This document shows, in pieces, positions 17,300 to 35,994 of a stretch of 64,000 nucleotides of DNA. The stretch comes from Thermocatellispora tengchongensis. Its GTDB lineage: Bacteria; Actinomycetota; Actinomycetes; Streptosporangiales; Streptosporangiaceae. The translations under genes and the position numbers were made by a program. The notes beneath the pieces were generated by a model. It was not told the origin of the DNA. It was given only the letters and a program-made list of their open reading frames with translations, and did not search any database. The stretch's first letter is position 1. Each line of letters starts with the position of its first letter. The stretch lies in the NCBI RefSeq assembly GCF_014202315.1, contig NZ_JACHGN010000012.1, forward strand, positions 248,001 to 312,000, given 5' to 3'.

Positions 17300-17306
17300 C
17301 GTGGGC

Positions 17307-18994: not shown

Positions 18995-19037
18995 CGTTCT
19001 CCACCGTGACCGCTTCCCCCGTGATCGTCCCACTGCC

Positions 19038-20015: not shown

Positions 20016-20133
20016 GCGGGGTTACAGGGTTCTGACCGCCTGAGTACGCGGGTCCTCGTGCGCGACGGGCCCGCGCGGGCGAGGATGGCGTGGTCAGCCA
20101 GCGCAGTCCAGGAAGCGCAGTCCAGGAGGGGCC

Positions 20134-21108: not shown

Positions 21109-21452
21109 GCGAGGACCTTCCGGCCGAGGCGGGGGCGCTGCGCGCCCGTCTCGCCGGCGAGTGGACCCACGCCCGCGAGGAGGACTCCGCGGGCGTGCGG
21201 GTCTACCGCCCCAGGGGCCACCCGCTGCCGCCCTCGCGCTGGCGGCACCGGCTCGACCTGCGCCCCGACGGCACGTACGTGGACCACCGCCTGGCCGCCG
21301 ACGACCGCTCGGCCCGCGACCACGGCCGGTGGACGGTGGGCCCCGGGCCCGCGATCGTGCTCACCCCCGACGATCCCGCCGCCCGCTCGCGCAGGATCGA
21401 GGTCGTCGCCGCCGGCCCCGGCCGGATCGAGGTGCGCGTCCCCGAGCCCTGA
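21105..21452 (+). CDS. Small protein of unknown function coupled to the M43 protease
   Basis: A 115-residue protein starting at GTG 21105 inside the protease stop codon (GTGA). It is acidic at the N terminus and then reads ALRARLAGEWTHAREED, SRWRHRLDLRPDGTYVDH and GRWTVGPGPAIVLTPDD, ending in short beta-strand-like segments. The alternation of G-x-W, R-L-x-L-x-P-D-G-T-Y and G-x-W motifs is what one sees in small lipocalin-like beta-barrels. No cysteines or signal peptide are visible. Translational coupling suggests it acts on the protease, as an inhibitor or folding partner, but this is inference. I do not recognise the family. Confidence 0.75.
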   Translation: MSEDLPAEAGALRARLAGEWTHAREEDSAGVRVYRPRGHPLPPSRWRHRLDLRPDGTYVDHRLAADDRSARDHGRWTVGPGPAIVLTPDDPAARSRRIEVVAAGPGRIEVRVPEP

Positions 21453-21480
21453 CCGGGGGCGGGACGAGGGTGAGAACGGT

Positions 21481-22125: not shown

Positions 22126-22231
22126 GCCTTGCTCCCGATGAGTTGGCCGTCCACTCCCCACCCACGATAGATCACAGGCCGCCCCTGCGTCCGGCGTCAC
22201 GCAGGGCGTCGGCGCGATCCGCGGCTGTGTG

Positions 22232-22927: not shown

Positions 22928-22988
22928 CCCAAGACCTTCCCTCGTCGCGCTCGCGCGCGTGAACGCATCCGACTTGCTCGCCCCTCGG

Positions 22989-23963
22989 CTACCGCGCCGC
23001 GCGGGCTTCGTACGCGGCGGCGGCCACGACCAGGTCCTCCCAGGCCATGCCCACGCCCTTGAACACCCGTGGACCGGGGGCCGGCTCGACGGCGCCGGTC
23101 ACCAGCTCGGCCAGATTCCCGGCGAGATGGCCAACCGCGATGGTACCGGTTCGCAGGGGAACGACCAGATCGCCCGCTTCGGCGAGGGCGGCGCCGCGCG
23201 CCTCCACGACCACGGTGGCGCGGGCGACGAGATCCTCGTCGATCTCCCGGGCGTCGGGCTCGTGCGAGCCGACCGCGACGACGGTGGCGTCGTCGCGGGT
23301 GAGCTTACCGGGGAACACGGGGACGCGAGCGGTTGTGCAGCAGGCGATGAGGTCCGATCCGGCGACGGCCGAGGCCACGGCGGGGTCGCCGGCGGTCAGG
23401 GCGGCGGCCTCCAGGCCCGCGCCGGCGCATCGGGCGGCGAACGCGGCCGTCCGCCCGGGGTCGCGCCCGACCACGGTGACCCGCTCGACCGGGCGCACGG
23501 CGCGCAGCGCCTCCACGTGGCCCCACGCCTGCGGGCCGGTGCCGAAGACCGTCAGCGTGCGCGCGCCGGGCCGGGCCAGGTGGTCCACCGCGAGCGCGGA
23601 GACCGCCGGGGTGCGCAGCGAGGTGAGCGCGATCCCGTCCAGCGTGGCCAGCGGCGCCAGCGTCTCACCGTCGAACAGCAGGTACGTCCCCTGGATGCGC
23701 GGCAGCCCTCGCCCCGGGTTGCCGGGCGCCACGGTGACGGCCTTCAGGCCCGCGTACCGGTCCCAGGCGGCGGGCATCATCATCAACTGCCCGGCGGGCA
23801 CGTCCATGACCGGCCGGCGCGGGGTGTCCTCGGGGTCCAGCCCACCGCGCAGGGCGTCGCCCAGCACGCGTACGGCGCGTTCCACCGGCACCAGCGCCCG
23901 CAGCTCGGCGCCGCCGATGTGCGGCGGCGCGGTCTCCTCGTTCACGTCGGTCCCCATCCTCAT
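22989..23963 (-). CDS. Ornithine cyclodeaminase/mu-crystallin family reductase (probable delta-1-pyrroline-2-carboxylate reductase)
   Basis: A 324-residue Rossmann-fold protein. Family features are RRPVMDVPAGQLMMMPA, the YAGLKAVTVAPGNPGRGLP segment, TSLRTPAVSALA and the nucleotide motif FGTGPQAWGH. The ATG at 23963 overlaps the stop of the upstream racemase-like gene (ATGA). True ornithine cyclodeaminases are fewer than reductases in this family. Beside a proline-racemase-fold gene, the expected job is NAD(P)H reduction of the cyclic imine formed by 3-hydroxyproline dehydration, giving L-proline. The activity is inferred from context. Confidence 0.82.
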   Translation of the reverse strand: MRMGTDVNEETAPPHIGGAELRALVPVERAVRVLGDALRGGLDPEDTPRRPVMDVPAGQLMMMPAAWDRYAGLKAVTVAPGNPGRGLPRIQGTYLLFDGETLAPLATLDGIALTSLRTPAVSALAVDHLARPGARTLTVFGTGPQAWGHVEALRAVRPVERVTVVGRDPGRTAAFAARCAGAGLEAAALTAGDPAVASAVAGSDLIACCTTARVPVFPGKLTRDDATVVAVGSHEPDAREIDEDLVARATVVVEARGAALAEAGDLVVPLRTGTIAVGHLAGNLAELVTGAVEPAPGPRVFKGVGMAWEDLVVAAAAYEARAAR

Positions 23964-24931
23964 CGCAGGGTGAACCCGGTGCCGAGCGGGTCGCGCGGGT
24001 CGAGGATGAAGCGGTGCTCCCCCGTGCGGTACGCCATGCCCGCGATCTCCGGGATCACCCCGCCGTCGCGCGCCTCCGCGACCCGGCCGCTGAACACGCT
24101 TCCCACGATGCTCTCGTGGGTGAGCGTCCCGGTGAACCCCTCTTCGTGCAGCAGCGCCAGCCGGGCCGCCGTGCCCGAGCCGCAGGGCGAGCGGTCCACC
24201 TCGCCGTCGGCGAAGACGGTGACGTTGCGCTGCCGCCCGGGGCCCAGCTCGTCGTGGAAGATCACGCCGTACACGCCGGACAGCCGCTCGTCGTCGGGGT
24301 GCCGGGTGGCGGGGTGGCCGGCCAGCGCCGCCTTGACGGCCCGGCCGGCCGCGATCAGCTCGCCCAGGCGCGCGGGCTCCACCGCGAGCCCGAAATCGGC
24401 GGCGCGCACGCTGGCGTAGATCGCGCCCCCGTAGGCGAGGTCGGCGTGCCCGCCGGGCACGGGGACCCGGCGCGCGAGCACGTAGGACAGCACGTTGCGG
24501 AACGTCACCTCCTCGACCCGCCCGCCCGAGCAGCGCACCCGGGCCGTGACCCGCCCCGAGGGCACGTCGATCACCACGTCGGTCTCGCCGTCGGGCGCGG
24601 CCTCGACCAGGCCCCGTTCCACCGCGTGCACCCCGAGCGCGATCGTCCCGTGCCCGCAGGCGGTGGAGTAGCCGTCCTTGTGCCAGAACAGCACCCCGAG
24701 GTGGGCGCCGTCGTCGTCGGGCGGCACCAGGAAGCAGCCGTACATGTCGGCGTGACCGCGCGGCTCGTGGCACAGCAGCCTGCGTACCCGGTCGATCGCG
24801 GGCGCGGCGGCGGCCTCGCGGCGGTCGAGCACGGTGGCCCCGGGTATCTCCGGCACCCCGGACAGCACGATCCGGAACGGCTCCCCGGCCGTGTGGTAGT
24901 CCACGGTACGGACCTCGCTCAAGTAAGTCAC
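23960..24931 (-). CDS. Proline racemase-fold enzyme (hydroxyproline epimerase or dehydratase)
   Basis: About 323 residues. Both active-site motifs have cysteine: ACGHGT (about residue 92) and RSPCGSGT (about residue 250). Two cysteines normally indicate racemase/epimerase activity, whereas trans-3-hydroxyproline dehydratases usually have Cys and Thr. Yet the gene is fused by overlap to a pyrroline-carboxylate-reductase-like gene, the arrangement seen for 3-hydroxyproline dehydratases. The start is uncertain: GTG 24931 (used here), GTG 24904 with GCGAGG before it, or TTG 24937. A palindrome at 24928-24944 overlaps the start region. It is a distinct paralogue of the enzyme at 34993-35994. Confidence 0.85.
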   Translation of the reverse strand: MTYLSEVRTVDYHTAGEPFRIVLSGVPEIPGATVLDRREAAAAPAIDRVRRLLCHEPRGHADMYGCFLVPPDDDGAHLGVLFWHKDGYSTACGHGTIALGVHAVERGLVEAAPDGETDVVIDVPSGRVTARVRCSGGRVEEVTFRNVLSYVLARRVPVPGGHADLAYGGAIYASVRAADFGLAVEPARLGELIAAGRAVKAALAGHPATRHPDDERLSGVYGVIFHDELGPGRQRNVTVFADGEVDRSPCGSGTAARLALLHEEGFTGTLTHESIVGSVFSGRVAEARDGGVIPEIAGMAYRTGEHRFILDPRDPLGTGFTLR

Positions 24932-24944
24932 ATACAAAGTGTGA
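24928..24944. promoter_or_regulatory. Candidate GntR operator
   Basis: TCACATACAAAGTGTGA is a TCACA-N7-TGTGA inverted repeat at the start of the racemase-fold gene. It is the strongest dyad in this part of the divergent gap and lies where a repressor would block transcription of the racemase/OCD/GntR cluster. Confidence 0.5.
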
Positions 24945-24988
24945 TGTATTACTGCGGCTTCGATGCAGGCGGGAGGGGCCTCGCCATT

Positions 24989-25020
24989 CTTAGAGTTGAG
25001 TTCTAGAATAAACCTCTAAG
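24989..25020. promoter_or_regulatory. 32-bp nested palindrome (TTCTAGAA type) before the DUF35-thiolase operon
   Basis: The inner TTCTAGAA (25001-25008) and the outer arms CTTAGAG (24989-24995) and CTCTAAG (25014-25020) share exactly the same dyad axis. A -10-like TAGAAT (25004-25009) lies inside it, so a bound repressor would occlude the promoter. The TTCTAGAA core recurs before the other acyl-CoA units at 30049 and 33262, with a variant at 33454. Confidence 0.65.
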
Positions 25021-25047
25021 ACCTGGCCCCCGGCCGCGAGGAGAACG

Positions 25048-25527
25048 ATGAGCGTTCCGGCTCCACCCCCGCCCCCACCCGACGGCCCGCGCCCGCCCGT
25101 GCCCAAGCCGGTGCCCAAGCCGACGCCGGACACCCTGCCCTTCTGGGAGGGCGCCGCCGCCGGGGAGCTGCGGGTGCAGCGGTGCACGGCCTGCGCGCGG
25201 CACTACTTCTATCCGCGGCCCGCCTGCCCCAGGTGCGGCTCGCAGGACGTGGAGTGGGTCGCCACCGGCGGGCGGGCCACCCTGTACTCGTACGTGATCA
25301 GCCACCGGCCCGCCCCCGGCTTCGAGCACGAGGGACCGTACGCGATAGCCGTCGTCGAGCTGGAGGAGGGCGTGCGGATGATGACCAACATCGTCAACGT
25401 GGAGGCCACGCCGGAGAACCTGGTGCTCGACATGCCGCTGCGGGTGGTGTTCGAGGAGCGCGGCGGGGTGCGCCTGCCCCTGTTCGAACCCGCGTACGAG
25501 CCCGCGGCCGAGGCGGCGGAGGGATGA
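25048..25527 (+). CDS. DUF35 OB-fold / zinc-ribbon protein (acyl-CoA-associated)
   Basis: A 159-residue protein starting at ATG 25048 after GAGGAG. A proline-rich N terminus leads into a rubredoxin-like zinc ribbon (QRCTACARHYFYPRPACPRCGS, four Cys as two CxxC) and an OB-fold that binds acyl-CoA. Such proteins pair with thiolase-like partners in steroid side-chain and acyl-CoA metabolism and are needed for activity of the complex. The thiolase-like gene overlaps its stop by 4 nt. A TTCTAGAA palindrome precedes it. Confidence 0.9.
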   Translation: MSVPAPPPPPPDGPRPPVPKPVPKPTPDTLPFWEGAAAGELRVQRCTACARHYFYPRPACPRCGSQDVEWVATGGRATLYSYVISHRPAPGFEHEGPYAIAVVELEEGVRMMTNIVNVEATPENLVLDMPLRVVFEERGGVRLPLFEPAYEPAAEAAEG

Positions 25528-26672
25528 GCGTGCGGATCGTGATCGCGGGGGCCGCGGAGACCGACGAGCTGGGCAAGCTGCCCCACATGTCCGCCACGCA
25601 GCTCCACCTCCAGGCGGCGCGCAACGCCCTGGCCGACGCCGGGCTCGGCAAGGACGACATCGACGGCGTGGCCACGGTGGGCACGCCCGGCCCGATCCAG
25701 ATCGCGCACGCGCTCGGCATCACGCCGGCCTGGCTGGACGGCACCGGCGTGGGCGGCTCGTCGTTCCTGTTCCACGTGCGGCACGCCGTCGCGGCGATCC
25801 GGGCCGGGCTGTGCCACACGGTGCTGATCACCCACGGCGAGTCGGGACGCTCGCGGGTGGGCGCGCCCCGTTTCGCGCCCGCGCCGGACTCGCTGCCGGG
25901 GCAGTTCGAGGCCCCGTACGGCGTGCTCGGCCCGGCCACCACGTTCACCCTGACCGCGCTGCGCTACATGAAGGAGACCGGGCTCACCCACGAGCAGCTC
26001 GCCGAGGTGGCCGTGGCGCAGCGGCGCTGGTCGCACCTCAACCCGCGGGCCATGATGCGCGAGCCGATCACCGTGGAGGACGTGCTCGCCTCCCGGATGG
26101 TCGCCTACCCGTTCCACCTGCTGGAGTGCTGCCTGGTCACCGACGGCGGCGGCGCGCTCGTCGTCACCTCCGAGGAGCGGGCGCGGGCGCTCGGCACGCC
26201 CAGGCCCCCGGTGTACGTGCTGGGCAGTGGCGAGTCCGCCGAGTCGCCGATCATCTCCCAGATGGAGGACTTCACCACGTCGGCCGCCTTCCGCAGGGCG
26301 GGCGAGGCCGCCTTCGCCGAGGCGAAGATCTCCCACGCCGACGTGGACCACCTGATGATCTACGACGCGTTCGCGCACGTGCCGATCTACGGCCTGGAGG
26401 ACCTGGGTTTCGTGGGGCGGGGCGAGGCGGGCGCGTTCATCGCCGAGGGCCACACCTCGCCCGGCGGCCGGCTGCCGATGAACACCAACGGCGGCGGGCT
26501 GTCGTACACGCACACCGGGATGTACGGGATGTTCGCCATCCAGGAGTCGGTGCGCCAGCTTCGCGGCGAGGCCGCGGCACAGGTGCCCGGCGTGGAGGTG
26601 AGCGTGGTGCTGGGCAACGGCGGGATGTTCGCCAGCGCGGCCACGCTGGTCCTGGCCGACCGCGAGGGCTAG
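25524..26672 (+). CDS. Thiolase-family (lipid-transfer protein/SCP-x-like) protein
   Basis: A 382-residue thiolase-fold protein starting at ATG 25524 (ATGA overlap with the DUF35 gene). Thiolase landmarks include the C-terminal segment with GHTSPGGRLPMNTNGGGLSYTHTGMYG and an NGGMFAS loop. The usual N-terminal nucleophile Cys region is replaced by VGGSSFLFHVRHA, so classical thiolysis may be absent. This matches the Ltp-type proteins, some of which act as retro-aldolases with DUF35 partners. The substrate is probably a CoA thioester with a branched or steroid-like chain; this is inferred. Confidence 0.87.
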   Translation: MSVRIVIAGAAETDELGKLPHMSATQLHLQAARNALADAGLGKDDIDGVATVGTPGPIQIAHALGITPAWLDGTGVGGSSFLFHVRHAVAAIRAGLCHTVLITHGESGRSRVGAPRFAPAPDSLPGQFEAPYGVLGPATTFTLTALRYMKETGLTHEQLAEVAVAQRRWSHLNPRAMMREPITVEDVLASRMVAYPFHLLECCLVTDGGGALVVTSEERARALGTPRPPVYVLGSGESAESPIISQMEDFTTSAAFRRAGEAAFAEAKISHADVDHLMIYDAFAHVPIYGLEDLGFVGRGEAGAFIAEGHTSPGGRLPMNTNGGGLSYTHTGMYGMFAIQESVRQLRGEAAAQVPGVEVSVVLGNGGMFASAATLVLADREG

Positions 26673-26680
26673 CCGCGTAC

Positions 26681-26704
26681 GCGGCGGCGGCCGGGCGCCG
26701 CCGC
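26681..26704. terminator. Bidirectional terminator hairpin between convergent genes
   Basis: GCGGCGGCG (26681-26689) pairs with CGCCGCCGC (26696-26704) around a 6-nt loop. It lies in the 37-bp gap between the thiolase-like gene and the convergent acyl-CoA ligase. Confidence 0.65.
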
Positions 26705-26709
26705 CGCGC

Positions 26710-28848
26710 TCAGTCACGCCAGGTCACCAGGGCGTCCAGCGCCTCCACCCGGGAGCCGGTGACCAGCAGCGGGTTGATCTCCAGCGACTCCAGCCGGTCG
26801 CCGAGCCCCTGCGCGAACGCGGCGATCCGGGCCACGACCGCGGCGACCGCGCCGAGGTCGGCGGGCTCGGTGCCGCGGGCCCCCTCCAGCAGGCGGGCGC
26901 CGCGCAGCTCGCCCAGCGCCCGGCGCACCTCGGCGGCGTCCACCGGGAGCACCCGCAGGGCGGTGTCGCGCAGCACCTCGACCCAGACGCCGCCCAGGCC
27001 GACGGCCAGGGTCAGGCCCCAGCCGGGGTCGCGCACCACGCCGACCAGCAGTTCCACACCCCCCTTGGGGCGCTGCGGCTGCACCAGCGCGCCGCTCGCC
27101 TCGATCCCCTCCGGGACCGCCGCGACGACCTCCCGGTACGCCTTGCGCACCTCGTGCCCGTCGGCCAGCCCGAGCTTCACGCCCCCGATGTCGCTCTTGT
27201 GGCCGAGCCCTTCCGCGGCGACCTTCAGCACCACCGGGTAGCCGAACCGCTCGGCCGCGGCCACCGCCGACTCCTCGTCGCGGGCCAGTTCGGAGGGCAC
27301 CACCGGGATGCCGCCCTCGGCCAGCAGGGCGGCCGCGCGGTGCTCGGCCCACAGGCCGCTCGCCCCCTCGGGCACCGCGACGGCCTTCGGGCGCGCCGGC
27401 TCGGCGGAGGCCGCCGCCCGTTCCAGCTCCGCGCGCCGGATCTCCGACCAGCGCACCGCCGCGCCGATGGCGGACAGGCCGTGCTCGATGCCGCCCGCGA
27501 CGTACGGGTAGCCGGTCTCGGCCTGCACCCTGCGGCCGAACGGGCTGATGTCGGTGAGCACGTTGGAGACCACCACCACCGGCGTGGGCGAGGCGGCGAT
27601 CCGCTCGGCGGCGGCCCGGTACGTCGCCAGGACCGGCGCCGGGTCGGGCGGCTCCGCCCGGGGCGGCTCCGACAGCAGCAGGACGGCGTCGATGCCGGGG
27701 TCGCCGGTCACGGCCTCCAGCGCGCGGCCGAGCAGCGTACGGTCGATGAGGACGTAGCCGGTGACGTCCAGCGGGTTCTGCACGGTCGCGAACGCGGGCA
27801 CGATCCCGGCCAGCTTCGCCGCGGTCTCCGGCGCGAACTCCGGCAGCTCCAGGCCCTCGTCCTCGGCCCGGTCGGCGATGATCTCCGAGGCGCCTCCCGA
27901 CGGAGTGACGACGCCGAGACGGCGGCCGGGGATCTCGCCCACCGCGTCCAGCAGCCCGGCCGTGATCAGCAGGTCCTCCAGCGAGCGCACCCGCAGCACC
28001 CCCAGGCCGCGGAACGCCGCGTCCACCACGTTGTCGTCGCCCACCAGCGCGCCGGTGTGGGCCTGGGCGGTGCGCGAGGCCAGCGAGCTGCGGCCGATCT
28101 TCAGCGCCACGATCGGCTTGCCCTTCAGCAGCGCCCTGCGCGCCACCCGGGCGAACTCGGCCGGATCGCGCACCGACTCCAGGAACAGCGCGATCACCTT
28201 GGTGGCGGGGTCGTCCACCAGGTAGTCGATCACGTCGGTGACGGTCAGCACCGCCTCGTTGCCCATCGAGGTGAGCAGGCTGATCCCGACGTTGCGCGCC
28301 TGGGCGAAGGCCAGCACCGAACTGGCCAGCGCGCCGCTCTGCAGCACCACCCCGACCGAGCCGCGCAGCAGCGGCGCCGGGATCGGCAGCCCGTACGGGG
28401 TGACGCCGGCCGCCGCGTTGATGTAGCCGTTGCCGTTCGGGCCGAGCAGCGCCAGGCCGTGCTCCCGGGCGAAGCCGGCCACCTCCCGCTCCAGCGCCGC
28501 GCCCTCGCCGCCCACCTCGCCGAACCCGGCGGTGAGCACCACATAGGCGCGCACGCCCAGCCCGGCGCCCTCGCGCAGGATCGGCAGCACCGCCCGCGTG
28601 GGCACCATCACGTACGCGAGGTCCACCGGACCGGGCACGTCCGACAGGCTGCGGTATGCGTCCTGCCCGTGGACCGTGCCGCCGCGCGGGTTCACCAGGT
28701 GCACCGGCCCCGCGAACCCCTGGGCCCGCAGGTTGCCGAAGGTGCTGACCGACCATCCGGACTTGTCCGTGGCGCCGACCAGCGCGATCGAGCGCGGGTT
28801 GAACAGGGCCCTGACGTCCGGCGCCGGAACGCCCGCCTGTGCCGTCAT
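26710..28848 (-). CDS. Acyl-CoA synthetase, NDP-forming type (acetate--CoA ligase family)
   Basis: A 712-residue fused protein: CoA-binding Rossmann domain (FNPRSIALVGATDKSGWS), two succinyl-CoA-synthetase-like flavodoxin domains with the phospho-His region in TPSGGASE, and a C-terminal ATP-grasp domain (FGYPVVLKVAAEGLGHKSDIGGV). It interconverts acid, CoA and NTP with acyl-CoA. The ATG at 28848 is one base after the stop of the acyl-CoA dehydrogenase, so they form an operon. Substrate not determinable; the neighbourhood suggests a medium or branched acyl group rather than acetate. Confidence 0.9.
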   Translation of the reverse strand: MTAQAGVPAPDVRALFNPRSIALVGATDKSGWSVSTFGNLRAQGFAGPVHLVNPRGGTVHGQDAYRSLSDVPGPVDLAYVMVPTRAVLPILREGAGLGVRAYVVLTAGFGEVGGEGAALEREVAGFAREHGLALLGPNGNGYINAAAGVTPYGLPIPAPLLRGSVGVVLQSGALASSVLAFAQARNVGISLLTSMGNEAVLTVTDVIDYLVDDPATKVIALFLESVRDPAEFARVARRALLKGKPIVALKIGRSSLASRTAQAHTGALVGDDNVVDAAFRGLGVLRVRSLEDLLITAGLLDAVGEIPGRRLGVVTPSGGASEIIADRAEDEGLELPEFAPETAAKLAGIVPAFATVQNPLDVTGYVLIDRTLLGRALEAVTGDPGIDAVLLLSEPPRAEPPDPAPVLATYRAAAERIAASPTPVVVVSNVLTDISPFGRRVQAETGYPYVAGGIEHGLSAIGAAVRWSEIRRAELERAAASAEPARPKAVAVPEGASGLWAEHRAAALLAEGGIPVVPSELARDEESAVAAAERFGYPVVLKVAAEGLGHKSDIGGVKLGLADGHEVRKAYREVVAAVPEGIEASGALVQPQRPKGGVELLVGVVRDPGWGLTLAVGLGGVWVEVLRDTALRVLPVDAAEVRRALGELRGARLLEGARGTEPADLGAVAAVVARIAAFAQGLGDRLESLEINPLLVTGSRVEALDALVTWRD

Positions 28849-28849
28849 C

Positions 28850-30019
28850 TCACTCCCCGATGGTGCCGAGACGGGCGTGCCCGCGCAGCAGGTTGCGCGC
28901 TATCGTGCGCCGCTGGATCTCGTCGGTGCCCTCGAAGATGCGCAACAGGCGCAGCTCGCGGTACCACCGCTCGATCGGCAGCTCCTTGGTGTATCCCATG
29001 CCCCCGTGAATCTGCATCACCCGGTCCACCACCTGGTTGGCCATGATCGCCCCGTTCAGCTTGGCGATGGACGCGGCGTGCCGGGCGTCCCGGCCCTGCT
29101 GCACCTGCCAGGCGGCGTTGAGGGTCAGCCACTTGGCCGCCTCGATCTCGACCTGCGAGTCGGCGATCATCCACTGGATGGCCTGGTACTCCGCGATCGG
29201 CCGCCCCATGGACTTGCGGATCTTGGCGTAGTCGATGGCCATCTGCAGCAGCCGCTCGGCCGCGCCGACCGCCCGCGCGGGGATCATGTACCGCCCCTGC
29301 CCGATCCACTGCATCGCGAGCTGGAACCCCTGCCCCAGTTCCCCGAGGATGTTCTCCTCAGGGACCCGGACGTCCTCGAACACCAGCGACGCGGGCCCCC
29401 ACTGCCCCATCGTCGGGATCGGCTCCGACTTCCACCCCATGTCCCGGTCCACCAGGAAGCAGGTCACCCCGCCGTTGGCGCCCTTCTCGGGGTCGGTCAC
29501 CGCGAACACCATCACGAAGTCGGCCTCGTTGCCCCCGGTGATGAACGTCTTCTCCCCGTTGATCACCCACTCGCCGCCGTCCTTGACCGCCCGCGTCCGG
29601 ATGTTGCGCGCGTCCGACCCGGCCCCCGGTTCCGTGATCGCGAAACACGACCGCCGCTCCCCCTCGATCGTGGGGATCAGGTACCGCCGCTTCTGCTCCT
29701 CGTTCCCGGCGTACAGGATGTTGTCCGCGCTGCCCCCGAAACTGAACGGCACGAACGTCCGCCCGGTCTCCATCGCGATGATCGCCGACATCACCGGCCC
29801 GAGCGCGGCCCCGCCGTACTCCTCCGGCGTGTTGATCCCCCAGAACCCCATCTGCCGCGCCTTGTCCCGCAGCCCCCGCAACACCTCCGGCTCGATCCCC
29901 GGCCGCCCCGCCCGCTCGTTCCGCAACACCTCGGGCTCCAGCGGCATGACCTCCTTCTCCACGAACGCCCGCACCGTGTCCCGAATCTGCCGCTCTTCCA
30001 CACTGAGCCCGAAGTCCAT
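28850..30019 (-). CDS. Acyl-CoA dehydrogenase
   Basis: A 389-residue FAD-dependent dehydrogenase starting at ATG 30019 with GGAAGG upstream; an upstream in-frame start lacks a site. Family landmarks are CFAITEPGAGSDARN, the GGNEADFVMVFAV region, QIHGGMGYTKELPIERWYR and the C-terminal RIFEGTDEIQRRTIARNLLRG. The catalytic Glu is in FEGTDE, as in short/medium-chain types. It catalyses alpha,beta-desaturation of an acyl-CoA, passing electrons to ETF. First gene of an operon with the CoA ligase; its promoter region carries two TTCTAGAA/CTCTAGAA motifs. Confidence 0.93.
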   Translation of the reverse strand: MDFGLSVEERQIRDTVRAFVEKEVMPLEPEVLRNERAGRPGIEPEVLRGLRDKARQMGFWGINTPEEYGGAALGPVMSAIIAMETGRTFVPFSFGGSADNILYAGNEEQKRRYLIPTIEGERRSCFAITEPGAGSDARNIRTRAVKDGGEWVINGEKTFITGGNEADFVMVFAVTDPEKGANGGVTCFLVDRDMGWKSEPIPTMGQWGPASLVFEDVRVPEENILGELGQGFQLAMQWIGQGRYMIPARAVGAAERLLQMAIDYAKIRKSMGRPIAEYQAIQWMIADSQVEIEAAKWLTLNAAWQVQQGRDARHAASIAKLNGAIMANQVVDRVMQIHGGMGYTKELPIERWYRELRLLRIFEGTDEIQRRTIARNLLRGHARLGTIGE

Positions 30020-30048
30020 GGCCGGGTCCTTCCGCCGTCCGACGTCAT

Positions 30049-30069
30049 TTCTAGAATACGCCTCTAGAA
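30049..30069. promoter_or_regulatory. TTCTAGAA-type operator upstream of the acyl-CoA dehydrogenase operon
   Basis: TTCTAGAA (30049-30056) is followed by CTCTAGAAG (30062-30070). The centres of the two palindromic elements are 13 bp apart, the same spacing as between the core and outer arms at 24989-25020. The pair lies 30-50 bp upstream of the dehydrogenase start. Confidence 0.6.
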
Positions 30070-30749
30070 GTAAATTCCACCCTGATCCGCCCACCGCCCC
30101 CTGTCAAGGCCCCAGCAGTGCGCACCCACCCCCAAGAGGAGCCGCGACAGGCAAAGCACAGCGGGAGAGCGCACAGCGCGAGAGCGCGGCCGCGCTTCGA
30201 AGGTTCCGCCCCCCAGCACCCGGTCATGTTCCTGGCCGTCGGGGTGATGGGCCTGAACCTGCTGAACGCCTTCAACCGCCGGCCGTCGATCGGCCAGAGC
30301 ACCCCGATGGGCCTGGTCGCCCCGCCGCCGCCCACGACGCGACCGGCCCTCACCTCGGGTGTGAACCGCCGGCCTGTTCCCGCTGTCCGCTGCCGAGTTC
30401 GTGCCGGGCATCCGCAGGTTCCCAGCGCCCACGGCCCCGCGCCTCCACGTCCCGTTCTCGGGCTTCGCTCCCCTCGGTCTCAGGCTCCACGTTCCCTGCC
30501 CCACGCCGGCTCTCGTGCCAGGCGTCGTCGGCGGCCTCTTACGCCGCGCGCGTTCCGGCGTGACAGGTGCGCCCGCGGTGCCCTCCTGCGCTGCGAGCGG
30601 GGACGCGCAACCCCCAGGACCGGCCGGAACGGGAGGCCAACGGTGCGCGGTGCCGCCGAGGATACGCGCCAGGGCGCGAGGGGACGGTGGTGGTTGGGAA
30701 TGGGACCGGCGAAGCGATCCGCCGCTACAGCCCTCACCCGCAGCGGCCC

Positions 30750-31055
30750 GAACGCTGCGGCGCACGCCGCGGACACGGCCCACAGGCCCACCGGGGCCGC
30801 CCACGCCACCCCGGCGCCGCACCCCGCGCAGCGGACGCTACGGCCACTCCATGGCCCACACCCCACCCGATGCCCCCACCAGGGCGCCGCGCCCCGCACA
30901 CCGTGGAGGCTGCGGCAAGACGTCACAGAGACGGCCCACAGCCCACCTCCCCGCTCACCCCGGCGCCGCACCCCACCCTCGGACGCTGCGGCACACGCCA
31001 CGGACACGGCCCACAGCCCCACCCCACACCCACCCCGGTGCCGCGCCCGCACTCC
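30750..31055. repeat. Four degenerate direct repeats of about 72-83 bp
   Basis: Blocks beginning near 30751, 30834, 30906 and 30982 each start with a GGACGCTGCGGC-like word, continue with GACACGGCCCACAG or a variant, and end with CACCCCGGCGCCGCACCCC or a variant. Similarity is clear by eye but imperfect. They do not encode a consistent peptide repeat. Confidence 0.5.
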
Positions 31056-31103
31056 TGGGCCGTGCCGGGTCGGGGCGTCGCCGCCCCCGACAGGTCCCCG
31101 CGA

Positions 31104-31297
31104 GAGTGCCCGGGCAACGGGGGATCTTCCATAACGCGGTGTGGATGGCGGAGCATGTGCCGACGGGCGGCGTTCTCCCCTGCCTTCTGGGTGTGTCGCC
31201 GTTCGGGAGGAGGCGGCCGGAGGGCGTCGCGTTTCCGCAAGTTCCGGCATCCACCCCCATCCCGTCGGGCGCAAGATCCACCGTTGCCCGGACACTC
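31104..31297. mobile_element. 194-bp MITE-like element with 25-bp terminal inverted repeats
   Basis: The left end (31104-31128, beginning GAGTGCCCGGGCAACGG) and the reverse complement of the right end (31273-31297, beginning GAGTGTCCGGGCAACGG) match at 23 of 25 positions. The interior of about 145 bp has no coding potential. No target-site duplication is evident. Long, near-perfect ends around a short non-coding core are what a non-autonomous transposon derivative looks like; a large structured RNA or extended hairpin is the alternative. Confidence 0.55.
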
Positions 31298-31444
31298 CCT
31301 GCCTTCTCCTCGTGCGCACGCGCCGGGCCGCCTTGGAGGACGCCGTGGGCCCGGGGGCACGGCGGCGGGAGCGGCGGTCTTGTGGCGTGCGGCCCGGGGC
31401 GCGCCTGCTGCTGGGGGGAAGGGCGCCCTGGGCCTGGGGCGGGG

Positions 31445-32290
31445 CTAGATGAAGGTGGCGACGCCGTGGGAGATGGCGGGGCGGCCGTCGGGTTTGAGGG
31501 TTTGGAAGCGGGCCGTACGGTCGTCCACCCAGATGTTGATCGTCAGCGACTCGCCGGGGAAGACGGGGGTGGTGAAGCGGCCGGACATGGATCTGAAGCG
31601 GGACGGGTCGCCGTCGGTGAGGGCGTGGAGGAGGGCTCGGCCGGTGACGCCGTACGTGCACAGGCCGTGCAGGATGGGGCGGTCGAAGCCGGCTCGGGCG
31701 GCGAAGGCGGGGTCGGAGTGGAGGGGGTTGCGGTCGCCGGACAGGCGGTAGATGAGGGCCTGTTCGGGGCGGGTCTCGTAGGTGAGCTTGTGGTCGGGGG
31801 CCCGGTCGGGCTCCTCCCAGGTGGTACGGGGGCCGCGGTCGCCGCCCCAGCCGCCCTCGCCGCGGATGAACACCGAGCTGCGGGAGGTGATCATGGGGTC
31901 GCCGGTGGCGGCGTCCACGGCGGCCGCCTCGGTGACGACCAGGGCGCCGGAGCCCTTGTCGTAGATGCCGGTGACCTTGGAGGTGGTGCGTACGGTCCCC
32001 TCGGGCGGGAGTTCGCGGTGCAGTTCGAAGGACTGCTCGGCGTGGACGAGCATGGCGGGGTCGAAGTCGCCGAACCTGCGGCCGAGGGGGGCCTGGGCGG
32101 CCAGGACGGCGAAGGTGGGCAGCACCCGCTGCCGTACGCCCGCGGAGTTCTCGGTGGTGAAGGGCAGCTCGCGCAGCGGGTCGCCGAGGCCGGCGCCCAC
32201 GCCGACGGCGTACAGGAGGGTGTCCTTGGAGGTCCAGGAGCGCTCGTACGGCTCGCTCTCCACCCCGATGACGTCGTGGTCCAGCGGCAT
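31445..32290 (-). CDS. MaoC-like enoyl-CoA hydratase (hydratase 2)
   Basis: A 281-residue double hot-dog protein starting at ATG 32290. The C-terminal catalytic motif is LSGDRNPLHSDPAFAARAGFDRPILHGL, the standard hydratase-2 motif with Asp, Asn and His. The N-terminal half is a degenerate MaoC_N domain (YAVGVGAGLGDPLRELPFTTE). It hydrates trans-2-enoyl-CoA to the R-3-hydroxy product. Located 5 nt after the SDR gene, whose product would oxidise that alcohol: together they reproduce the two activities of peroxisomal multifunctional enzyme 2. Confidence 0.92.
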   Translation of the reverse strand: MPLDHDVIGVESEPYERSWTSKDTLLYAVGVGAGLGDPLRELPFTTENSAGVRQRVLPTFAVLAAQAPLGRRFGDFDPAMLVHAEQSFELHRELPPEGTVRTTSKVTGIYDKGSGALVVTEAAAVDAATGDPMITSRSSVFIRGEGGWGGDRGPRTTWEEPDRAPDHKLTYETRPEQALIYRLSGDRNPLHSDPAFAARAGFDRPILHGLCTYGVTGRALLHALTDGDPSRFRSMSGRFTTPVFPGESLTINIWVDDRTARFQTLKPDGRPAISHGVATFI

Positions 32291-32295
32291 GCCGA

Positions 32296-33219
32296 TCAGC
32301 CCTCCCGTCCGGGGATCACGCCGTCCTGCCGGGCGTTGGGGGCGGCCTTCTCGACCAGGCCGGGGATGACGGCGCCGAGTTCGGCGGGGTCCCAGCGGGC
32401 GCCCTTGTCGGCGCCGGGGCCGGCGTGCCAGCCCTCGGCGACGCTGATCATGCCGCCGCGCACGTTGAACACCCGGCCGGTGATGCCGCGGGCCTCCTCG
32501 CTGCCCAGCCACACGACCAGGGGGGCGATGTTGTCGGGGTGGCCGGCGTCGAACTCGCCCTCGGCGGGCCGGCGCCGGCCGGGCATGAGGTTCTCGGTCA
32601 TGCGGGTGAGCGCGGCGGGCGCTACGGCGTTGACCGTGACGCCGTACCTGGCCAGCTCCTGGGCGGCGATGACGGTGAAGGCGGCGATGCCGGCCTTGGC
32701 GGCGCCGTAGTTGGTCTGCCCGGGGTTGCCGTAGATGCCGGACGACGAGGTGGTGTTGATGATCGCGGCCTCCACCTGCTCGCCGGCCTTGGCCCGCTCC
32801 CGCCAGTACGCCGCCGCGTGCCGCGTCGGCGCGAACGTGCCGCGCAGGTGCACCCGGATGACGGCGTCCCACTCCTCGGCGGTCATGTTGACCAGCATCC
32901 GGTCGCGCAGGATGCCGGCGTTGTTGACCAGCACGTGCAGCTCGCCGAAGTGGTCGATGGCGGCCTGGATCAGCCGCCGCGCGCCCTCGAAGTCCGCGAC
33001 GTCCTCGCCGTTGGCGATGGCCTCGCCGCCCATCGCGCGGATCTCCTCCACGACCTCGCCGGCGGGCCCGGTCGAGGACCCGGTGCCGTCCACCTCCGCG
33101 CCGAGGTCGTTGACCACGACCCGGGCGCCCTGGCGGGCGAACTCCAGCGCGTGCCCTCTGCCGATCCCCCGCGCCGCCCCGGTGACGATCACCGTGCGGC
33201 CGGCCGCGATCCCGTTCAT
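32296..33219 (-). CDS. Short-chain dehydrogenase, 3-hydroxyacyl-CoA dehydrogenase type
   Basis: A 307-residue SDR of the 17-beta-HSD4/multifunctional-enzyme type. The coenzyme motif is VTGAARGIGRGHALEFARQGA followed by VVVNDLGAEVDG, whose Asp favours NAD. NNAG and the YGAAK catalytic motif are present. The start is ATG 33219 with GGGAG upstream. It probably oxidises R-3-hydroxyacyl-CoA made by the MaoC hydratase encoded 5 nt downstream. A perfect GTTCTAGAAC palindrome lies 41 bp upstream of the start. Confidence 0.92.
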   Translation of the reverse strand: MNGIAAGRTVIVTGAARGIGRGHALEFARQGARVVVNDLGAEVDGTGSSTGPAGEVVEEIRAMGGEAIANGEDVADFEGARRLIQAAIDHFGELHVLVNNAGILRDRMLVNMTAEEWDAVIRVHLRGTFAPTRHAAAYWRERAKAGEQVEAAIINTTSSSGIYGNPGQTNYGAAKAGIAAFTVIAAQELARYGVTVNAVAPAALTRMTENLMPGRRRPAEGEFDAGHPDNIAPLVVWLGSEEARGITGRVFNVRGGMISVAEGWHAGPGADKGARWDPAELGAVIPGLVEKAAPNARQDGVIPGREG

Positions 33220-33260
33220 CCGATCTCCCATCGAACGCTCCGGACCCAGAGTGGAACATA

Positions 33261-33270
33261 GTTCTAGAAC
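33261..33270. promoter_or_regulatory. Perfect GTTCTAGAAC palindrome before the SDR-MaoC operon
   Basis: A 10-bp perfect palindrome containing the TTCTAGAA core shared with 25001 and 30049. It lies in the divergent gap between the SDR and MFS genes, 42-51 bp upstream of the SDR start. Confidence 0.6.
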
Positions 33271-33452
33271 GCTGAGCGTTTCCCACGCCGGACCCGATGT
33301 CAACACCGAACCTTCGCCAACCGTGCCGTTCCCGCAGGCAGGAGGGGCCACCGGGCTCCGGCGCACATCCGGGCGCCCTGGCGCGCCTCTCACCGGCCCC
33401 TTGGGCGGGCCGGACGAGGTTGGTCCACTCACCGCCCTCTGTCGCGAATGTA

Positions 33453-33475
33453 ATTCTAGTATTAGACTTCAAGAA
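33453..33475. promoter_or_regulatory. Variant TTCTAGTA/TTCAAGAA site before the MFS gene
   Basis: TTCTAGTA (33454-33461) and TTCAAGAA (33468-33475) lie 14 bp apart, about 45 bp upstream of the MFS start. They resemble the two-element arrangement of the 30049 site, but are less perfect. Confidence 0.4.
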
Positions 33476-33517
33476 CTCCGGTGTGCGCCACCCCCCAGAC
33501 AGACGGGAGCCTGCGAG

Positions 33518-34996
33518 GTGACTTCGGTACGGGAAGAGGTCACCGCGGGCGGCGAGGAGCGGAGCATCGGCTACGCCTGGCGGGTGGTCTCGGTGGTCGG
33601 CCTGGCCGGCGTGCTCACCGCGCTGGGCGGCAGCGCCCTGAACGTGGCCCTGCCGCAGGTGGTGCAGCAGACGGGCGCGAGCGCCGCCGCCGCGAGCTGG
33701 ATCCTGCTGTCCTTCCAGCTCACCACGACCACGCTGATGGTCGCCTTCGGCCGCATGGCCGACATGTTCGGACGGCGCGCGATGTACCTGGGCGGCCTGG
33801 CCACCTACACCGCGGCCAGCCTGCTGGCCGGGTTCGCGCCCGACCCGTGGCTGATCGTGGCGCTGCGGGTGTTCCAGGCGGCGGGCACGGCGATGCTGCT
33901 GACCAACAGCGCCGCGCTGATCACCGACGCGTTCCCCCGCGCCCGGCTGGGCGAGGGCATGGGCGTCTACACCGCCTGCTTCTCCATCGCCCAGCTCATC
34001 GGGCCGACCATGGGCGGCTTCCTGGCCGAGCATCTGGGCTGGCGCTGGGTGTTCTGGTACAACGTGCCGATCGGCGTGGGCTGCCTGGCCTGGGACGCGT
34101 ACGTGCTGCGGCGCACCCGGCCGCGTCAGACCGAGCGCGGCATGGACTGGCCGGGCAACCTGCTGGTGCTGCTGTGCCTGGGCGGCCTGCTCATCGCGCT
34201 GTCGGAGGTCAGCAGGCGCGGCTGGCACGACCCGCTGATCCTGGCGGGCCTGGCCGGGTTCGCGGTCACCCTGCCGCTGTTCCTGCTGGTGGAGCTGCGG
34301 CACCGCCGCCCGGTGGTGGACCTGCGCATGTTCCGGCAGGCGGCGTTCGCGCTGGGCACCGCGGCCTCGTTCCTGGCCTCGTGCGCCCGGGTCGCGGTGG
34401 TGCTGCTGCTGGCCCTGTTCTTCCAGGCCGTGCACGGCGACGACCCGGTCACGGCCGGGCTGAAGATCCTGCCGCTGGCGGTCGCGGCGATGGTCGCCTC
34501 GGCCGGGTCGGGGTTCCTGCAGCGGCGGCTCAGCGCGCGCACGCTCGCCGCGGCGGGCAGCGGCCTGGTCACGCTGGGCCTGCTGGCGCTGCTCGCCACG
34601 ATCTCCCCGGACGCGCCCTACCCGCTGCTGGGCGCGGCCCTGCTGGTCATCGGCCTGGGCTCGGGCACGTTCCTGCCGTCCAACACGGTGGTGCTGATGG
34701 ACGGCATGCCGGCCGGCCGCGTGGGCATCGCCAACGCGATGCGGCTCATGCTGCAGAACACCGGCATCGTGGTCGGCACCGCCCTGGCCCTGTCGATCAT
34801 CACGGCGCCGCTGCCCGCCGACCTGCACGACGCGGTGTTCGCCGGGACGCTGCACGACGTCTCCGGCCCCGCCACCGCCCAGCTCGCGCTCGGCTACCGC
34901 TGGGCGCTGGCGTGCATGGCCGCGGTCTCGGCGCTGTGCACGCTCACCTGCCTGGGCAGGCGGCGCGCGGGCCGGCGGGCCGCCGCGGGCCGCTAG
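33518..34996 (+). CDS. MFS transporter, DHA2 (EmrB/QacA) family
   Basis: A 492-residue transporter with 14 predicted helices, starting at GTG 33518 (VTSVREEV) with GGAG about 9 nt upstream. The motif-A loop is FGRMADMFGRRAMYLGG, and the motif-C-like IAQLIGPTMGGFLAEHLGWRWVFWYNVPIG is typical of drug:H+ antiporters. It is divergent from the acyl-CoA SDR operon and shares its regulatory gap, so it may export a toxic acid or an intermediate of that pathway. Its TAG stop overlaps the convergent racemase stop within CTAG. Confidence 0.88.
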   Translation: MTSVREEVTAGGEERSIGYAWRVVSVVGLAGVLTALGGSALNVALPQVVQQTGASAAAASWILLSFQLTTTTLMVAFGRMADMFGRRAMYLGGLATYTAASLLAGFAPDPWLIVALRVFQAAGTAMLLTNSAALITDAFPRARLGEGMGVYTACFSIAQLIGPTMGGFLAEHLGWRWVFWYNVPIGVGCLAWDAYVLRRTRPRQTERGMDWPGNLLVLLCLGGLLIALSEVSRRGWHDPLILAGLAGFAVTLPLFLLVELRHRRPVVDLRMFRQAAFALGTAASFLASCARVAVVLLLALFFQAVHGDDPVTAGLKILPLAVAAMVASAGSGFLQRRLSARTLAAAGSGLVTLGLLALLATISPDAPYPLLGAALLVIGLGSGTFLPSNTVVLMDGMPAGRVGIANAMRLMLQNTGIVVGTALALSIITAPLPADLHDAVFAGTLHDVSGPATAQLALGYRWALACMAAVSALCTLTCLGRRRAGRRAAAGR

Positions 34997-35994
34997 AGGA
35001 CGAAGCCCTCGGGGAAGGGGTCGCGCGGGTCGAGGAAGTACTGCGCGGTGCCGGTCACCCAGGCCCGCCCGGTGATCGTGGGCACGACCGCCTGCCTGCC
35101 CGCGACCTCCGCCTCGGCCACCAGCCGCCCCACGAACCGGGTGCCGATGAACGACTCGTTGACGAAGTCGGCGCCGAGCTCCAGCTCGCCGCGGGCGTGG
35201 AGCTGGGCCATGCGGGCGCTGGTGCCGGTGCCGCACGGCGAGCGGTCGAACCAGCCCGGGTGGATGGCCATGGCGTGCCGCGAGTGCCGGGCGTCGGAGC
35301 CGGGGGCGACGAACTGCACGTGGTGGCAGCCGCGGATGCCCGGGTCGAGCGGGTGCACCGGCTCGTCCTGCTCGTTGATCGCCGCCATGATGGCCAGCCC
35401 GGCGTCCAGGATCTGCTGCTTGGCCGCCCGGTCGAACGGCAGCCCCACCGACTCGATGTCCAGGATCGCGTAGAAGTTGCCGCCGTACGCCAGGTCGTAG
35501 CCGACCTCGCCCAGGCCCGGCACCTTCACCGTGCGCTCCAGGCCGACGCTGAAGGCGGGCACGTTCTGGATCGTGACCGCGGTCGCCGCGCCGTCCTCGA
35601 CCTTCACCTCGGCGACCACCAGCCCGGCGGGGGTGTCGAGGCGGATCGTGGTGACCGGCTCCACGACCGGCACCATGCCGGTCTCGACCAGCACGGTCGC
35701 CACCCCGATCGTGCCGTGGCCGCACATCGGCAGGCAGCCGGAGACCTCGATGTAGACCACGCCGTAGTCGGCGTCGGGCCGCGTGGGCGGCTGCAGGATC
35801 GCGCCGCTCATCGCGGAGTGGCCGCGCGGCTCGTTCATCAGCAGCCTGCGCACGTGGTCGAGGTTCGCCATGAAGTGCTCGCGGCGCTCGGCCATGGTCG
35901 CGCCGGGGATCACGCCGATCCCGCCGGTGATCACCCGCGTGGGCATGCCCTCGGTGTGCGAGTCGACCGCGTGGTAGACGTGGCGCGTTCTCAC
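34993..35994 (-). CDS. 4-hydroxyproline 2-epimerase (proline racemase family)
   Basis: A 333-residue enzyme with both catalytic cysteines: PMCGHGTIG (about residue 90) and FDRSPCGTGTSARMA (about residue 253). It converts trans-4-hydroxy-L-proline to cis-4-hydroxy-D-proline, the first step of bacterial hydroxyproline degradation. It is the last gene of a minus-strand operon that also contains the D-hydroxyproline dehydrogenase subunits and the pyrroline deaminase, so the 4-hydroxyproline assignment is much safer than for the paralogue at 23960. The start is GTG 35994, 22 bp after the deaminase gene. Proline racemase activity is the alternative. Confidence 0.9.
   Translation of the reverse strand: MRTRHVYHAVDSHTEGMPTRVITGGIGVIPGATMAERREHFMANLDHVRRLLMNEPRGHSAMSGAILQPPTRPDADYGVVYIEVSGCLPMCGHGTIGVATVLVETGMVPVVEPVTTIRLDTPAGLVVAEVKVEDGAATAVTIQNVPAFSVGLERTVKVPGLGEVGYDLAYGGNFYAILDIESVGLPFDRAAKQQILDAGLAIMAAINEQDEPVHPLDPGIRGCHHVQFVAPGSDARHSRHAMAIHPGWFDRSPCGTGTSARMAQLHARGELELGADFVNESFIGTRFVGRLVAEAEVAGRQAVVPTITGRAWVTGTAQYFLDPRDPFPEGFVL

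What the first reader, a model, noticed from the sequence alone, without database searches (positions are those of the whole stretch)
24989..33475. TTCTAGAA operator family marks an acyl-CoA regulon without an encoded local repressor
The same palindromic core precedes the DUF35-thiolase unit (with perfectly concentric outer arms), the dehydrogenase-ligase unit, the SDR-MaoC unit, and in variant form the MFS gene. Secondary elements lie 13-14 bp from the core at three of the four. No TetR gene lies among them, so the regulator is encoded elsewhere. The unit resembles, but is not the same as, the KstR-type motifs I know from sterol regulons.
Basis: partly seen in the sequence, partly recalled or inferred. 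Interest (0 to 1): 0.6.

Follow-up and report, generated by a model that had tools for sequence, protein, structure and literature searches.

The report
Dispersed TetR regulon for acyl-CoA breakdown
Four neighbouring gene units that probably break down an unidentified organic acid carry the same DNA switch sequence, and the protein that most likely works the switch is encoded on a different contig of the same genome, next to its own copy of the switch.

Summary
The sites are real: 3 of only 8 TTCTAGAA in the 11.65-Mb genome lie within 8.3 kb of the window (Poisson about 3e-8). In 78 loci with orthologues of this TetR, 68 carry the double site within 900 bp of tetR. The same sites precede orthologues of the window's dehydrogenase (58 of 58 loci), SDR (45 of 49) and MFS genes (37 of 43), and none of the four commonest flanking families. 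In 120 genomes of the family, sites exceed background only where the TetR is present. Correction: the operator is not the 8-mer but a 21-bp composite palindrome of two units 13 bp apart, TTCTAGAATnnnATTCTAGAA. Its half-sites TAGAA/TTCTA recall KstR sites with a 1-bp wider gap; it does not fit the KstR motif. Binding, repression and inducer are inferred. New member of a known kind.

The parts
24988..25021 (.). operator A: three units in 13-bp register (TCTTAGAG, TTCTAGAA, CTCTAAGA), upstream of the DUF35-thiolase unit
   Evidence: best-strand matrix scores 33.3 and 28.8 for the two pairs; overlaps the only promoter-like hit in 24850-35000, whose second hexamer TAGAAT ends at 25009 (0.3 expected by chance)
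25048..25527 (+). DUF35 protein (zf-ChsH2 plus OB_ChsH2_C)
   Evidence: Pfam; nearest solved chains 9myr_B, then ChsH2 6ok1_B; family K17
25524..26672 (+). SCP-x-type thiolase/aldolase, next to the DUF35 gene
   Evidence: nearest solved 4u4e, then 6ok1_A; family K2
26710..28848 (-). ADP-forming acyl-CoA synthetase type (CoA_binding_2, Succ_CoA_lig, ATP-grasp_5), probably in operon with the dehydrogenase
   Evidence: family K6
28850..30019 (-). acyl-CoA dehydrogenase
   Evidence: family K1, site-linked in 58 of 58 loci
30049..30069 (.). operator B: TTCTAGAA-N5-CTCTAGAA, upstream of the dehydrogenase-ligase unit
   Evidence: score 34.2
30070..31445 (.). stretch without a recognised gene, with a 75-bp tandem repeat (30853-31048); the place where many relatives hold tetR; no tetR remnant seen
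   Evidence: the one frame scanned here (30480-31661) has no Pfam hit
31445..32332 (-). MaoC hydratase 2 type (MFE-2_hydrat-2_N plus MaoC); exact start not settled
   Evidence: family K5
32296..33219 (-). SDR of the PRK07791 subfamily, 3-hydroxyacyl-CoA dehydrogenase type; first gene of the SDR-MaoC unit
   Evidence: family K3, site-linked in 45 of 49 loci
33249..33269 (.). operator C: GAGTGGAA-N5-TTCTAGAA (weak partner), upstream of the SDR-MaoC unit
   Evidence: score 14.5
33441..33474 (.). operator D: three units in 13-bp register (GTCGCGAA, TTCTAGTA, CTTCAAGA), upstream of the MFS gene
   Evidence: scores 30.5 and 25.7
33518..34996 (+). MFS transporter
   Evidence: Pfam MFS_1 1.5e-50; family K4, site-linked in 37 of 43 loci

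Best explanation
The four sites are operators of one TetR-family regulator encoded away from them, at G000:C36:60720-61346 (minus strand), as the second gene of a VOC-tetR pair that carries a variant of the same operator and is therefore probably autoregulated. The operator is a 21-bp composite palindrome, TTCTAGAATnnnATTCTAGAA: two TTCTAGAA-like units 13 bp apart, with the axis between them and the inner inverted repeat TAGAA-N5-TTCTA best conserved on average. Most likely one TetR dimer reads each inner repeat, so arrays of three units (operators A and D) hold two overlapping dimers. Bound 26-56 bp upstream of the start codons, at operator A over a TAGAAT -10-like hexamer, the protein would block transcription until an acyl-CoA or acid from the pathway releases it. 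The genes it controls make a beta-oxidation-type route for an unidentified carboxylic acid: transport (MFS), CoA ligation, dehydrogenation, MaoC hydration, SDR oxidation, and C-C cleavage by a thiolase-DUF35 pair. Shown by sequence comparison: the motif, its register, its linkage to these genes and to this TetR family, and the separate place of the regulator. Inferred: physical binding, dimer arrangement, repression rather than activation, inducer and substrate.
For: (a) Significance: 3 of 8 genomic TTCTAGAA lie in 8.3 kb. (b) The own-genome tetR follows a VOC gene preceded by TCCTAGAA-N5-TTCTAGTC at C36:61980-62000. (c) 68 of 78 loci with orthologues of this TetR have the double site within 900 bp of the tetR start. 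Sites by offset: 330 at 13 bp; 11-33 at eight other offsets tested, 73 at 11 bp, 57 at 14 bp and 90 at the 26-bp multiple. (d) Site-linked families: ACAD 58 of 58 loci, SDR 45 of 49, VOC 27 of 28, MFS 37 of 43, TetR 69 of 79, second MFS 22 of 28, thiolase 28 of 50; the flanking families K9, K10, K12 and K13, present in 25-27 loci, have 0. A site between two divergent genes counts for both, so ACAD and TetR often share one. (e) Motif search by expectation-maximisation on 147 of 307 upstream regions (160 dropped as redundant), not told the motif, returns this pattern. (f) 155 of 161 exact TTCTAGAA in the 78 loci have a 13-bp partner. (g) In 120 genomes of the family: 0.46 matches per Mb (both strands counted) in 38 TetR-positive genomes (reversed-pattern control 0.11), and 0.118 in 82 TetR-negative genomes (control 0.110); Mann-Whitney 8e-8, Fisher 8e-5. 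(h) The C3:655522 site precedes an MFS gene whose relative in G022 lies inside the same cluster with its own site. (i) The next best TetR matches in the genome (C7 and two on C33, 42-45% identical to the L049 query against 63% for C36) have no double site in the 11-20 kb fetched around them.
Against: No binding or expression data exist. 10 of 78 TetR loci lack a nearby site at this cut-off (L086, L113, L115, L140, L141, L142, L145, L146, L151, L152). 7 of 38 TetR-positive genomes have no exact CTAGAANNNNNTTCTA, and 36 of 82 TetR-negative genomes have at least one (background, by the control). Four of 60 genomes in the first sample had strict sites without a close orthologue (G001, G016, G020, G056); G016 and G020 have a more diverged TetR of the family beside the site. 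In the own genome, loose searches do not exceed the reversed control clearly (11 against 6) or at all (31/28 against 40/38). Operator C scores low (14.5), and the own tetR site scores well on one strand only (29.5 and 16.0). A site with a CGAA half also stands before an AAA-ATPase-like gene at C14:308561 (gene named by my reading). The outer halves are conserved too, one position as strongly as the inner ones. The loci are not independent: many are Nonomuraea, and by equal contig length 5 of the 89 loci are second copies of contigs already counted. The families fed to the motif search were partly chosen because they sit near sites.
Confidence: 0.86

Rival explanations
1. The sites belong to a KstR-type sterol regulator, and the genes are a piece of steroid side-chain catabolism.
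For: Half-sites TAGAA/TTCTA occur in KstR sites listed in PMC1995591 (passages); the thiolase-DUF35 pair matches 6ok1, Ltp2-ChsH2; SDR and MaoC match 17-beta-HSD4-type and peroxisomal MFE-2 enzymes among others.
Against: The published core TnnAACnnGTTnnA implies a 4-bp gap; here it is 5. The genome has 4 exact TAGAACNNGTTCTA, none in the window, though with one mismatch such sites are fewer than in the reversed control (8 against 15), so a working KstR regulon here is not established. The 60 best PDB matches shown for the TetR carry no KstR label (many labels are generic). Nearest folds are EthR2/Rv0078 and FasR. Among the site-linked families that I identified there is no AMP-type FadD, KstD or ring-cleavage enzyme.
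Confidence: 0.04
2. Another TetR of the same genome (C7:244123, C33:631 or C33:19969), or an unrelated regulator, is the real one.
For: They are the next best matches, and C33 carries its own thiolase-DUF35-ligase genes.
Against: No double site within the 11-20 kb fetched around them, whereas the C36 gene has one; genomes with the close orthologue, and only they, have sites above background.
Confidence: 0.08
3. Same regulator, different reading of the operator: each 8-bp TTCTAGAA is the site of its own dimer, or the whole 21 bp holds two dimers, with the 13-bp spacing serving cooperativity, as in dimer-of-dimers TetR proteins (CprB; QacR).
For: Outer halves are conserved too (1.31 bits per position over 6 positions against 1.83 over the 10 inner ones), and CprB binds a 22-bp site as two dimers (PMC4150764, passages).
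Against: Half-sites within one 8-mer are only about 4 bp apart, against 9 bp in the inner repeat; the recognition helices of CprB are 38.2 angstroms apart. Isolated 8-mers are rare (6 of 161). None of this excludes two dimers on the whole site.
Confidence: 0.3
4. Chance similarity of AT-rich promoter patches in a GC-rich genome.
For: TAGAAT resembles a -10 hexamer; loose own-genome searches are near background.
Confidence: 0.01

Closest known systems
KstR regulon (TetR, mycobacteria and other actinomycetes; PMC1995591, passages)
   Same: TetR repressor of its own gene and of a dispersed lipid-degradation regulon; palindrome with similar half-sites
   Different: Published core TnnAACnnGTTnnA (4-bp gap); here a 5-bp gap, 21-bp composite site and 13-bp arrays; no sign of the same TetR
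KstR2 regulon (PMC3068626, passages)
   Same: TetR, small catabolic regulon with few operators
   Different: Motif AnCAAGnnCTTGnT
FadRSa of Sulfolobus acidocaldarius (PMC6449355, passages)
   Same: TetR protein, only four genomic binding sites, linked to fatty-acid metabolism genes, two binding stoichiometries depending on the site
   Different: Archaeal; sequence kinship and gene place not compared here
Dimer-of-dimers TetR proteins: CprB (PMC4150764, passages); QacR (recalled)
   Same: Long operator able to hold two dimers
   Different: Stoichiometry untested here; units in a 13-bp register
EthR2/Rv0078 and FasR (nearest folds)
   Same: TetR fold, TM-score (query) 0.60-0.71
   Different: About 21-26% identity; operators not compared
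Ltp2-ChsH2 steroid aldolase (6ok1)
   Same: Thiolase and DUF35 genes side by side
   Different: Substrate and activity untested; the nearest solved thiolase is 4u4e

Membership tests
TetR family regulator (the C36 protein) | N-terminal TetR HTH (PF00440) and all-helical TetR fold | tested here: met
   Four orthologues scanned hit TetR_N (C36 protein itself not run on Pfam); C36 protein hits TetR NCBIfam models over the HTH, below their cut-offs; model pLDDT 89.8 matches solved TetR proteins
TetR family regulator (the C36 protein) | Palindromic operator, often at its own promoter | tested here: met
   Variant double site upstream of VOC-tetR and near tetR in 68 of 78 loci; binding itself not tested
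KstR regulon | Operator TnnAACnnGTTnnA | tested here: not met
   Gap is 5 not 4; no TAGAACNNGTTCTA with up to 1 mismatch in the window
KstR regulon | Regulator orthologous to Rv3574 | tested here: inconclusive
   No chain labelled KstR among the 60 PDB matches shown; labels often generic; direct alignment not made
Dimer-of-dimers TetR (QacR/CprB type) | Two dimers per operator | not testable with these tools
   The composite site is compatible, no more
Steroid side-chain aldolase system (Ltp2-ChsH2) | Thiolase plus DUF35 with rubredoxin-like zinc ribbon | tested here: met
Steroid side-chain aldolase system (Ltp2-ChsH2) | Retro-aldol cleavage of steroid acyl-CoA | not testable with these tools
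   needs an enzyme assay

The most novel reading that the evidence does not exclude
An apparently undescribed actinobacterial TetR regulon, found in Streptosporangiales-type genera (Nonomuraea, Microbispora, Actinomadura and others), Saccharopolyspora, Amycolatopsis and some Streptomyces, that governs breakdown of an unidentified acid. Its operator is an array read in 13-bp steps (n units holding n-1 overlapping dimers) and differs from KstR-type operators by a single extra base pair between near-identical half-sites.
Probability: 0.32. Interest if true: 0.55.

Novelty: new member of a known kind. Interest (0 to 1): 0.42.

Why it matters
It turns an orphan motif into a named regulator-operator-regulon hypothesis conserved across many actinomycete genera, and gives the exact protein and DNA to test. 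Knowing the regulator makes the pathway's substrate findable, since the compound that releases the TetR from the operator should be the substrate or its CoA ester. The one-base-pair difference from KstR-type sites is a neat case for studying how TetR proteins with similar half-sites avoid crosstalk.

Tried and rejected
Single 8-mer as the operator: rejected, because 155 of 161 copies in the TetR loci are paired at 13 bp. A decayed tetR in 30070-31445: looked for with the TetR and VOC family members. Among the 30 best rows shown the only hit there is K0_L125, an antisense shadow of the dehydrogenase gene caused by a mis-called ORF; weaker rows were not printed. Pro_racemase genes flanking the cluster (23960-24937, 34993-35994): not among the site-linked families, so left out. 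Loose own-genome scans: TTCTAGAANNNNNTTCTAGAA with up to 3 mismatches gives 11 places against 6 in the reversed control, and TAGAANNNNNYTCTA with up to 1 gives 31/28 against 40/38, so I used only exact or high-scoring sites. The KstR-type pattern TAGAACNNGTTCTA (typed from recall, consistent) has 4 exact places, none in the window; with one mismatch 8 against 15 in the control. Literature: TTCTAGAA plus TetR (334 papers, 20 listed; the one opened, PMC10304680, has the string only in a cloning primer, passages), KstR motif (15 of 85 listed), TetR/acyl-CoA dehydrogenase/DUF35/thiolase (5 listed), TCTAGAAT plus operator (4 listed), Streptosporang- and Nonomuraea regulon searches (none), two-dimer TetR (12 of 33 listed), TAGAAT/ATTCTA (4 listed) and Streptomyces beta-oxidation regulon (12 of 15 listed). 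No listed title or abstract start describes this regulon; most subscription journals are not held. Papers seen: passages only of PMC10304680, PMC1995591, PMC3068626, PMC4150764 and PMC6449355; all others as listings. QacR binding is recalled. My gene calls come from a simple codon-composition caller and have wrong starts in places.
Full report
Observation. TTCTAGAA occurs at 25001, 30049 and 33262, and as TTCTAGTA at 33454. The genome in which the window lies (11,649,915 bases, 62 contigs) holds 8 exact copies, so 3 of 8 within 8.3 kb has a Poisson probability near 3e-8 (a post hoc figure). The units can be read at a fixed 13-bp step: 24988/25001/25014, 30049/30062, 33249/33262 and 33441/33454/33467. 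The pair pattern TTCTAGAA-N5-TTCTAGAA with up to 3 mismatches is found 3 times in the window and never in 100 shuffles.

Genes. The four sites precede: a DUF35 protein (25048-25527) with an SCP-x-type thiolase (25524-26672); an acyl-CoA dehydrogenase (28850-30019, minus) with an ADP-forming acyl-CoA synthetase (26710-28848, minus); an SDR (32296-33219, minus) with a two-domain MaoC hydratase (31445-32332, minus); and an MFS transporter (33518-34996). Together they give transport, CoA activation and one full beta-oxidation-type round with a thiolase-DUF35 cleavage step. The substrate is not identified.

Finding the regulator. In relatives the double sites are clustered (11 of 60 genomes with a strict pattern). 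Eight genes beside them in seven loci form one family; the four of these scanned are TetR_N proteins, and seven are aligned. Searching the own genome with one of them (L049) gave a best match of 63% identity on contig C36, the next being 45%. An earlier motif search, made before the TetR was known, had already listed a variant double site at C36:61980-62000 (3 mismatches). The fetched locus (L069) shows that this site lies about 34 bp upstream of a VOC gene (C36:61434-61946, minus), which is followed by the tetR (C36:60720-61346, minus).

Test across genomes. A scan of genome contigs with the TetR alignment gave 78 loci (529 relatives, best 80 kept) from Nonomuraea, Planotetraspora, Microbispora, Microtetraspora, Actinomadura, Streptosporangium, Saccharopolyspora, Amycolatopsis, Streptomyces, Pseudonocardia and others. 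68 of 78 have the double site within 900 bp of the tetR start (sum of at most 4 mismatches in 16, one unit with at most 1); the ten without are L086, L113, L115, L140, L141, L142, L145, L146, L151 and L152. The number of sites by offset is 330 at 13 bp against 11-33 at offsets 9, 10, 12, 15, 16, 17, 20 and 21, 73 at 11, 57 at 14 and 90 at the 26-bp multiple. Of 272 operators, 57 have three or more units in register.

Regulon content. In 89 loci (the 78 plus 11 from G-handle genomes including the window; by equal contig length 5 of the 89 are second copies) the site-linked families are: dehydrogenase 58 of 58 loci, SDR 45 of 49, VOC 27 of 28, MFS 37 of 43, TetR 69 of 79, second MFS 22 of 28, thiolase 28 of 50, MaoC 10 of 43, DUF35 6 of 16 and ligase 2 of 39 (the last three are seen mostly as later genes of units). 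A site between divergent genes counts for both. The four flanking families present in 25-27 loci have none. In 45 of 78 loci the dehydrogenase is divergent from tetR, and in 31 of these MaoC or SDR follows within three genes. The window has the same order, dehydrogenase-operator-[gap]-MaoC-SDR-operator-MFS, with 1.4 kb without a recognised gene and with a 75-bp tandem repeat where relatives have tetR, and no tetR remnant among the matches shown. VOC directly upstream of tetR on the same strand was seen in 0 of 78 loci but is the arrangement on C36. So the regulator was most likely relocated (inference). G006 is a second case of a regulator on another contig (C34) than the enzymes (C23).

Presence test. 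In 120 genomes drawn from the family (completeness 90 or more), 38 have the TetR at E at most 1e-60. The palindrome core CTAGAANNNNNTTCTA occurs at 0.46 matches per Mb in those 38 (both strands counted; reversed control 0.113) and 0.118 per Mb in the other 82 (control 0.110): above background only where the TetR is (Mann-Whitney 8e-8; presence table 31/7/36/46, Fisher 8e-5). A smaller sample of 60 gave 7/4/11/38, p = 0.012. Genomes are related, so these p-values are optimistic.

Operator anatomy. Expectation-maximisation on 147 non-redundant upstream regions (160 of 307 dropped as redundant) returned TTTCTAGAATnnnATTCTAGAAT, whose symmetric part is the 21-bp TTCTAGAATnnnATTCTAGAA. It was not told the motif, although the gene families fed in were chosen because they neighbour sites. 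The ten inner positions (TAGAA, TTCTA) average 1.83 bits and six outer ones 1.31, though one outer A reaches 2.33. 155 of 161 exact TTCTAGAA in the 78 loci have a partner at 13 bp; per side 54% against 3-9% at seven other offsets. With this matrix, at score 16 or more, the 78 loci give 685 matches against 23 in the reversed sequences (the matrix was trained on part of them). The simplest reading is one dimer on TAGAA-N5-TTCTA, with overlapping dimers in longer arrays; two dimers on the whole site is the rival. The only promoter-like match in 24850-35000 has its -10 hexamer TAGAAT inside operator A (0.3 expected), which fits occlusion of the promoter but is weak evidence.

Wider regulon in the own genome. 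C3:655522 (score 37.4) lies before an MFS gene related to one inside the G022 cluster. C3:367237 (score 30.2) lies before a 4HBT_3 thioesterase, 58% identical to one that stands within about 0.2 kb of tetR in Streptomyces L135; the family also adjoins tetR in L092 and L110 (3 of 78 loci). Less sure are C10:205837 before another 4HBT_3 gene (18.7) and C2:286426, a 21-bp palindrome perfect but for its centre, before a second acyl-CoA dehydrogenase (18.4).

Comparison with the known. KstR: published core TnnAACnnGTTnnA, binding as a dimer (PMC1995591, passages). The half-sites are alike but the gap differs by one base pair. The own genome has four exact TAGAACNNGTTCTA, none in the window; one stands before what I read as a cytochrome P450 gene, but with one mismatch such sites are fewer than in the control (8 against 15), so a KstR regulon here is not shown. 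KstR2: AnCAAGnnCTTGnT (PMC3068626, passages), different. By fold the TetR is nearest EthR2/Rv0078 and FasR at 21-26% identity, so none of the 50 solved chains listed looks like an orthologue. Works like: FadRSa and KstR, few operators over a beta-oxidation set. Member of: TetR family, yes; KstR regulon, the operator test is not met.

Verdict. The recognition unit needed correcting, and the likely regulator can now be named by coordinates. It is a new member of a known kind of system, of moderate interest.

Noticed in passing
window 23960-24937 (-) and 34993-35994 (-): Two Pro_racemase-family genes flank the acyl-CoA cluster on both sides; neither is among the conserved site-linked families.
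   Followed up: partly
window 30853-31048: A 75-bp tandem repeat (2.5 copies) in the stretch where relatives have tetR.
   Followed up: partly
G000:C9:265547 and 267932 (L171): Two sites of a sister type, CAGAA or TAGAA halves with the same 5-bp gap, stand near an AMP-ligase and a double acyl-CoA dehydrogenase gene; perhaps another TetR with a changed half-site, perhaps the same one.
   Followed up: partly
G000:C33:1-11000 (L071) and 12000-30000 (L072): A paralogous cluster with thiolase (56% to L043), DUF35, ADP-forming ligase and two TetR genes 42-43% identical to the L049 TetR, without TTCTAGAA double sites; its operator is unknown.
   Followed up: no
several family genomes, e.g. G022:C59, G033:C11, G080:C1, G086:C39: The exact string CTAGAATATGGTTCTA recurs in genomes with and without the TetR; possibly a different conserved element.
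   Followed up: no
L177 (G006:C34) 12682-14421: A peptide-type ABC transporter (binding protein, then permeases) follows a site in G006; related transporter genes lie in L124 and L130, a hint at another uptake route.
   Followed up: partly
L040 3571-6128: In Planotetraspora (L040) an aldehyde dehydrogenase gene followed by an alcohol dehydrogenase gene carries the operator, so an alcohol or aldehyde precursor of the acid may feed the pathway.
   Followed up: no
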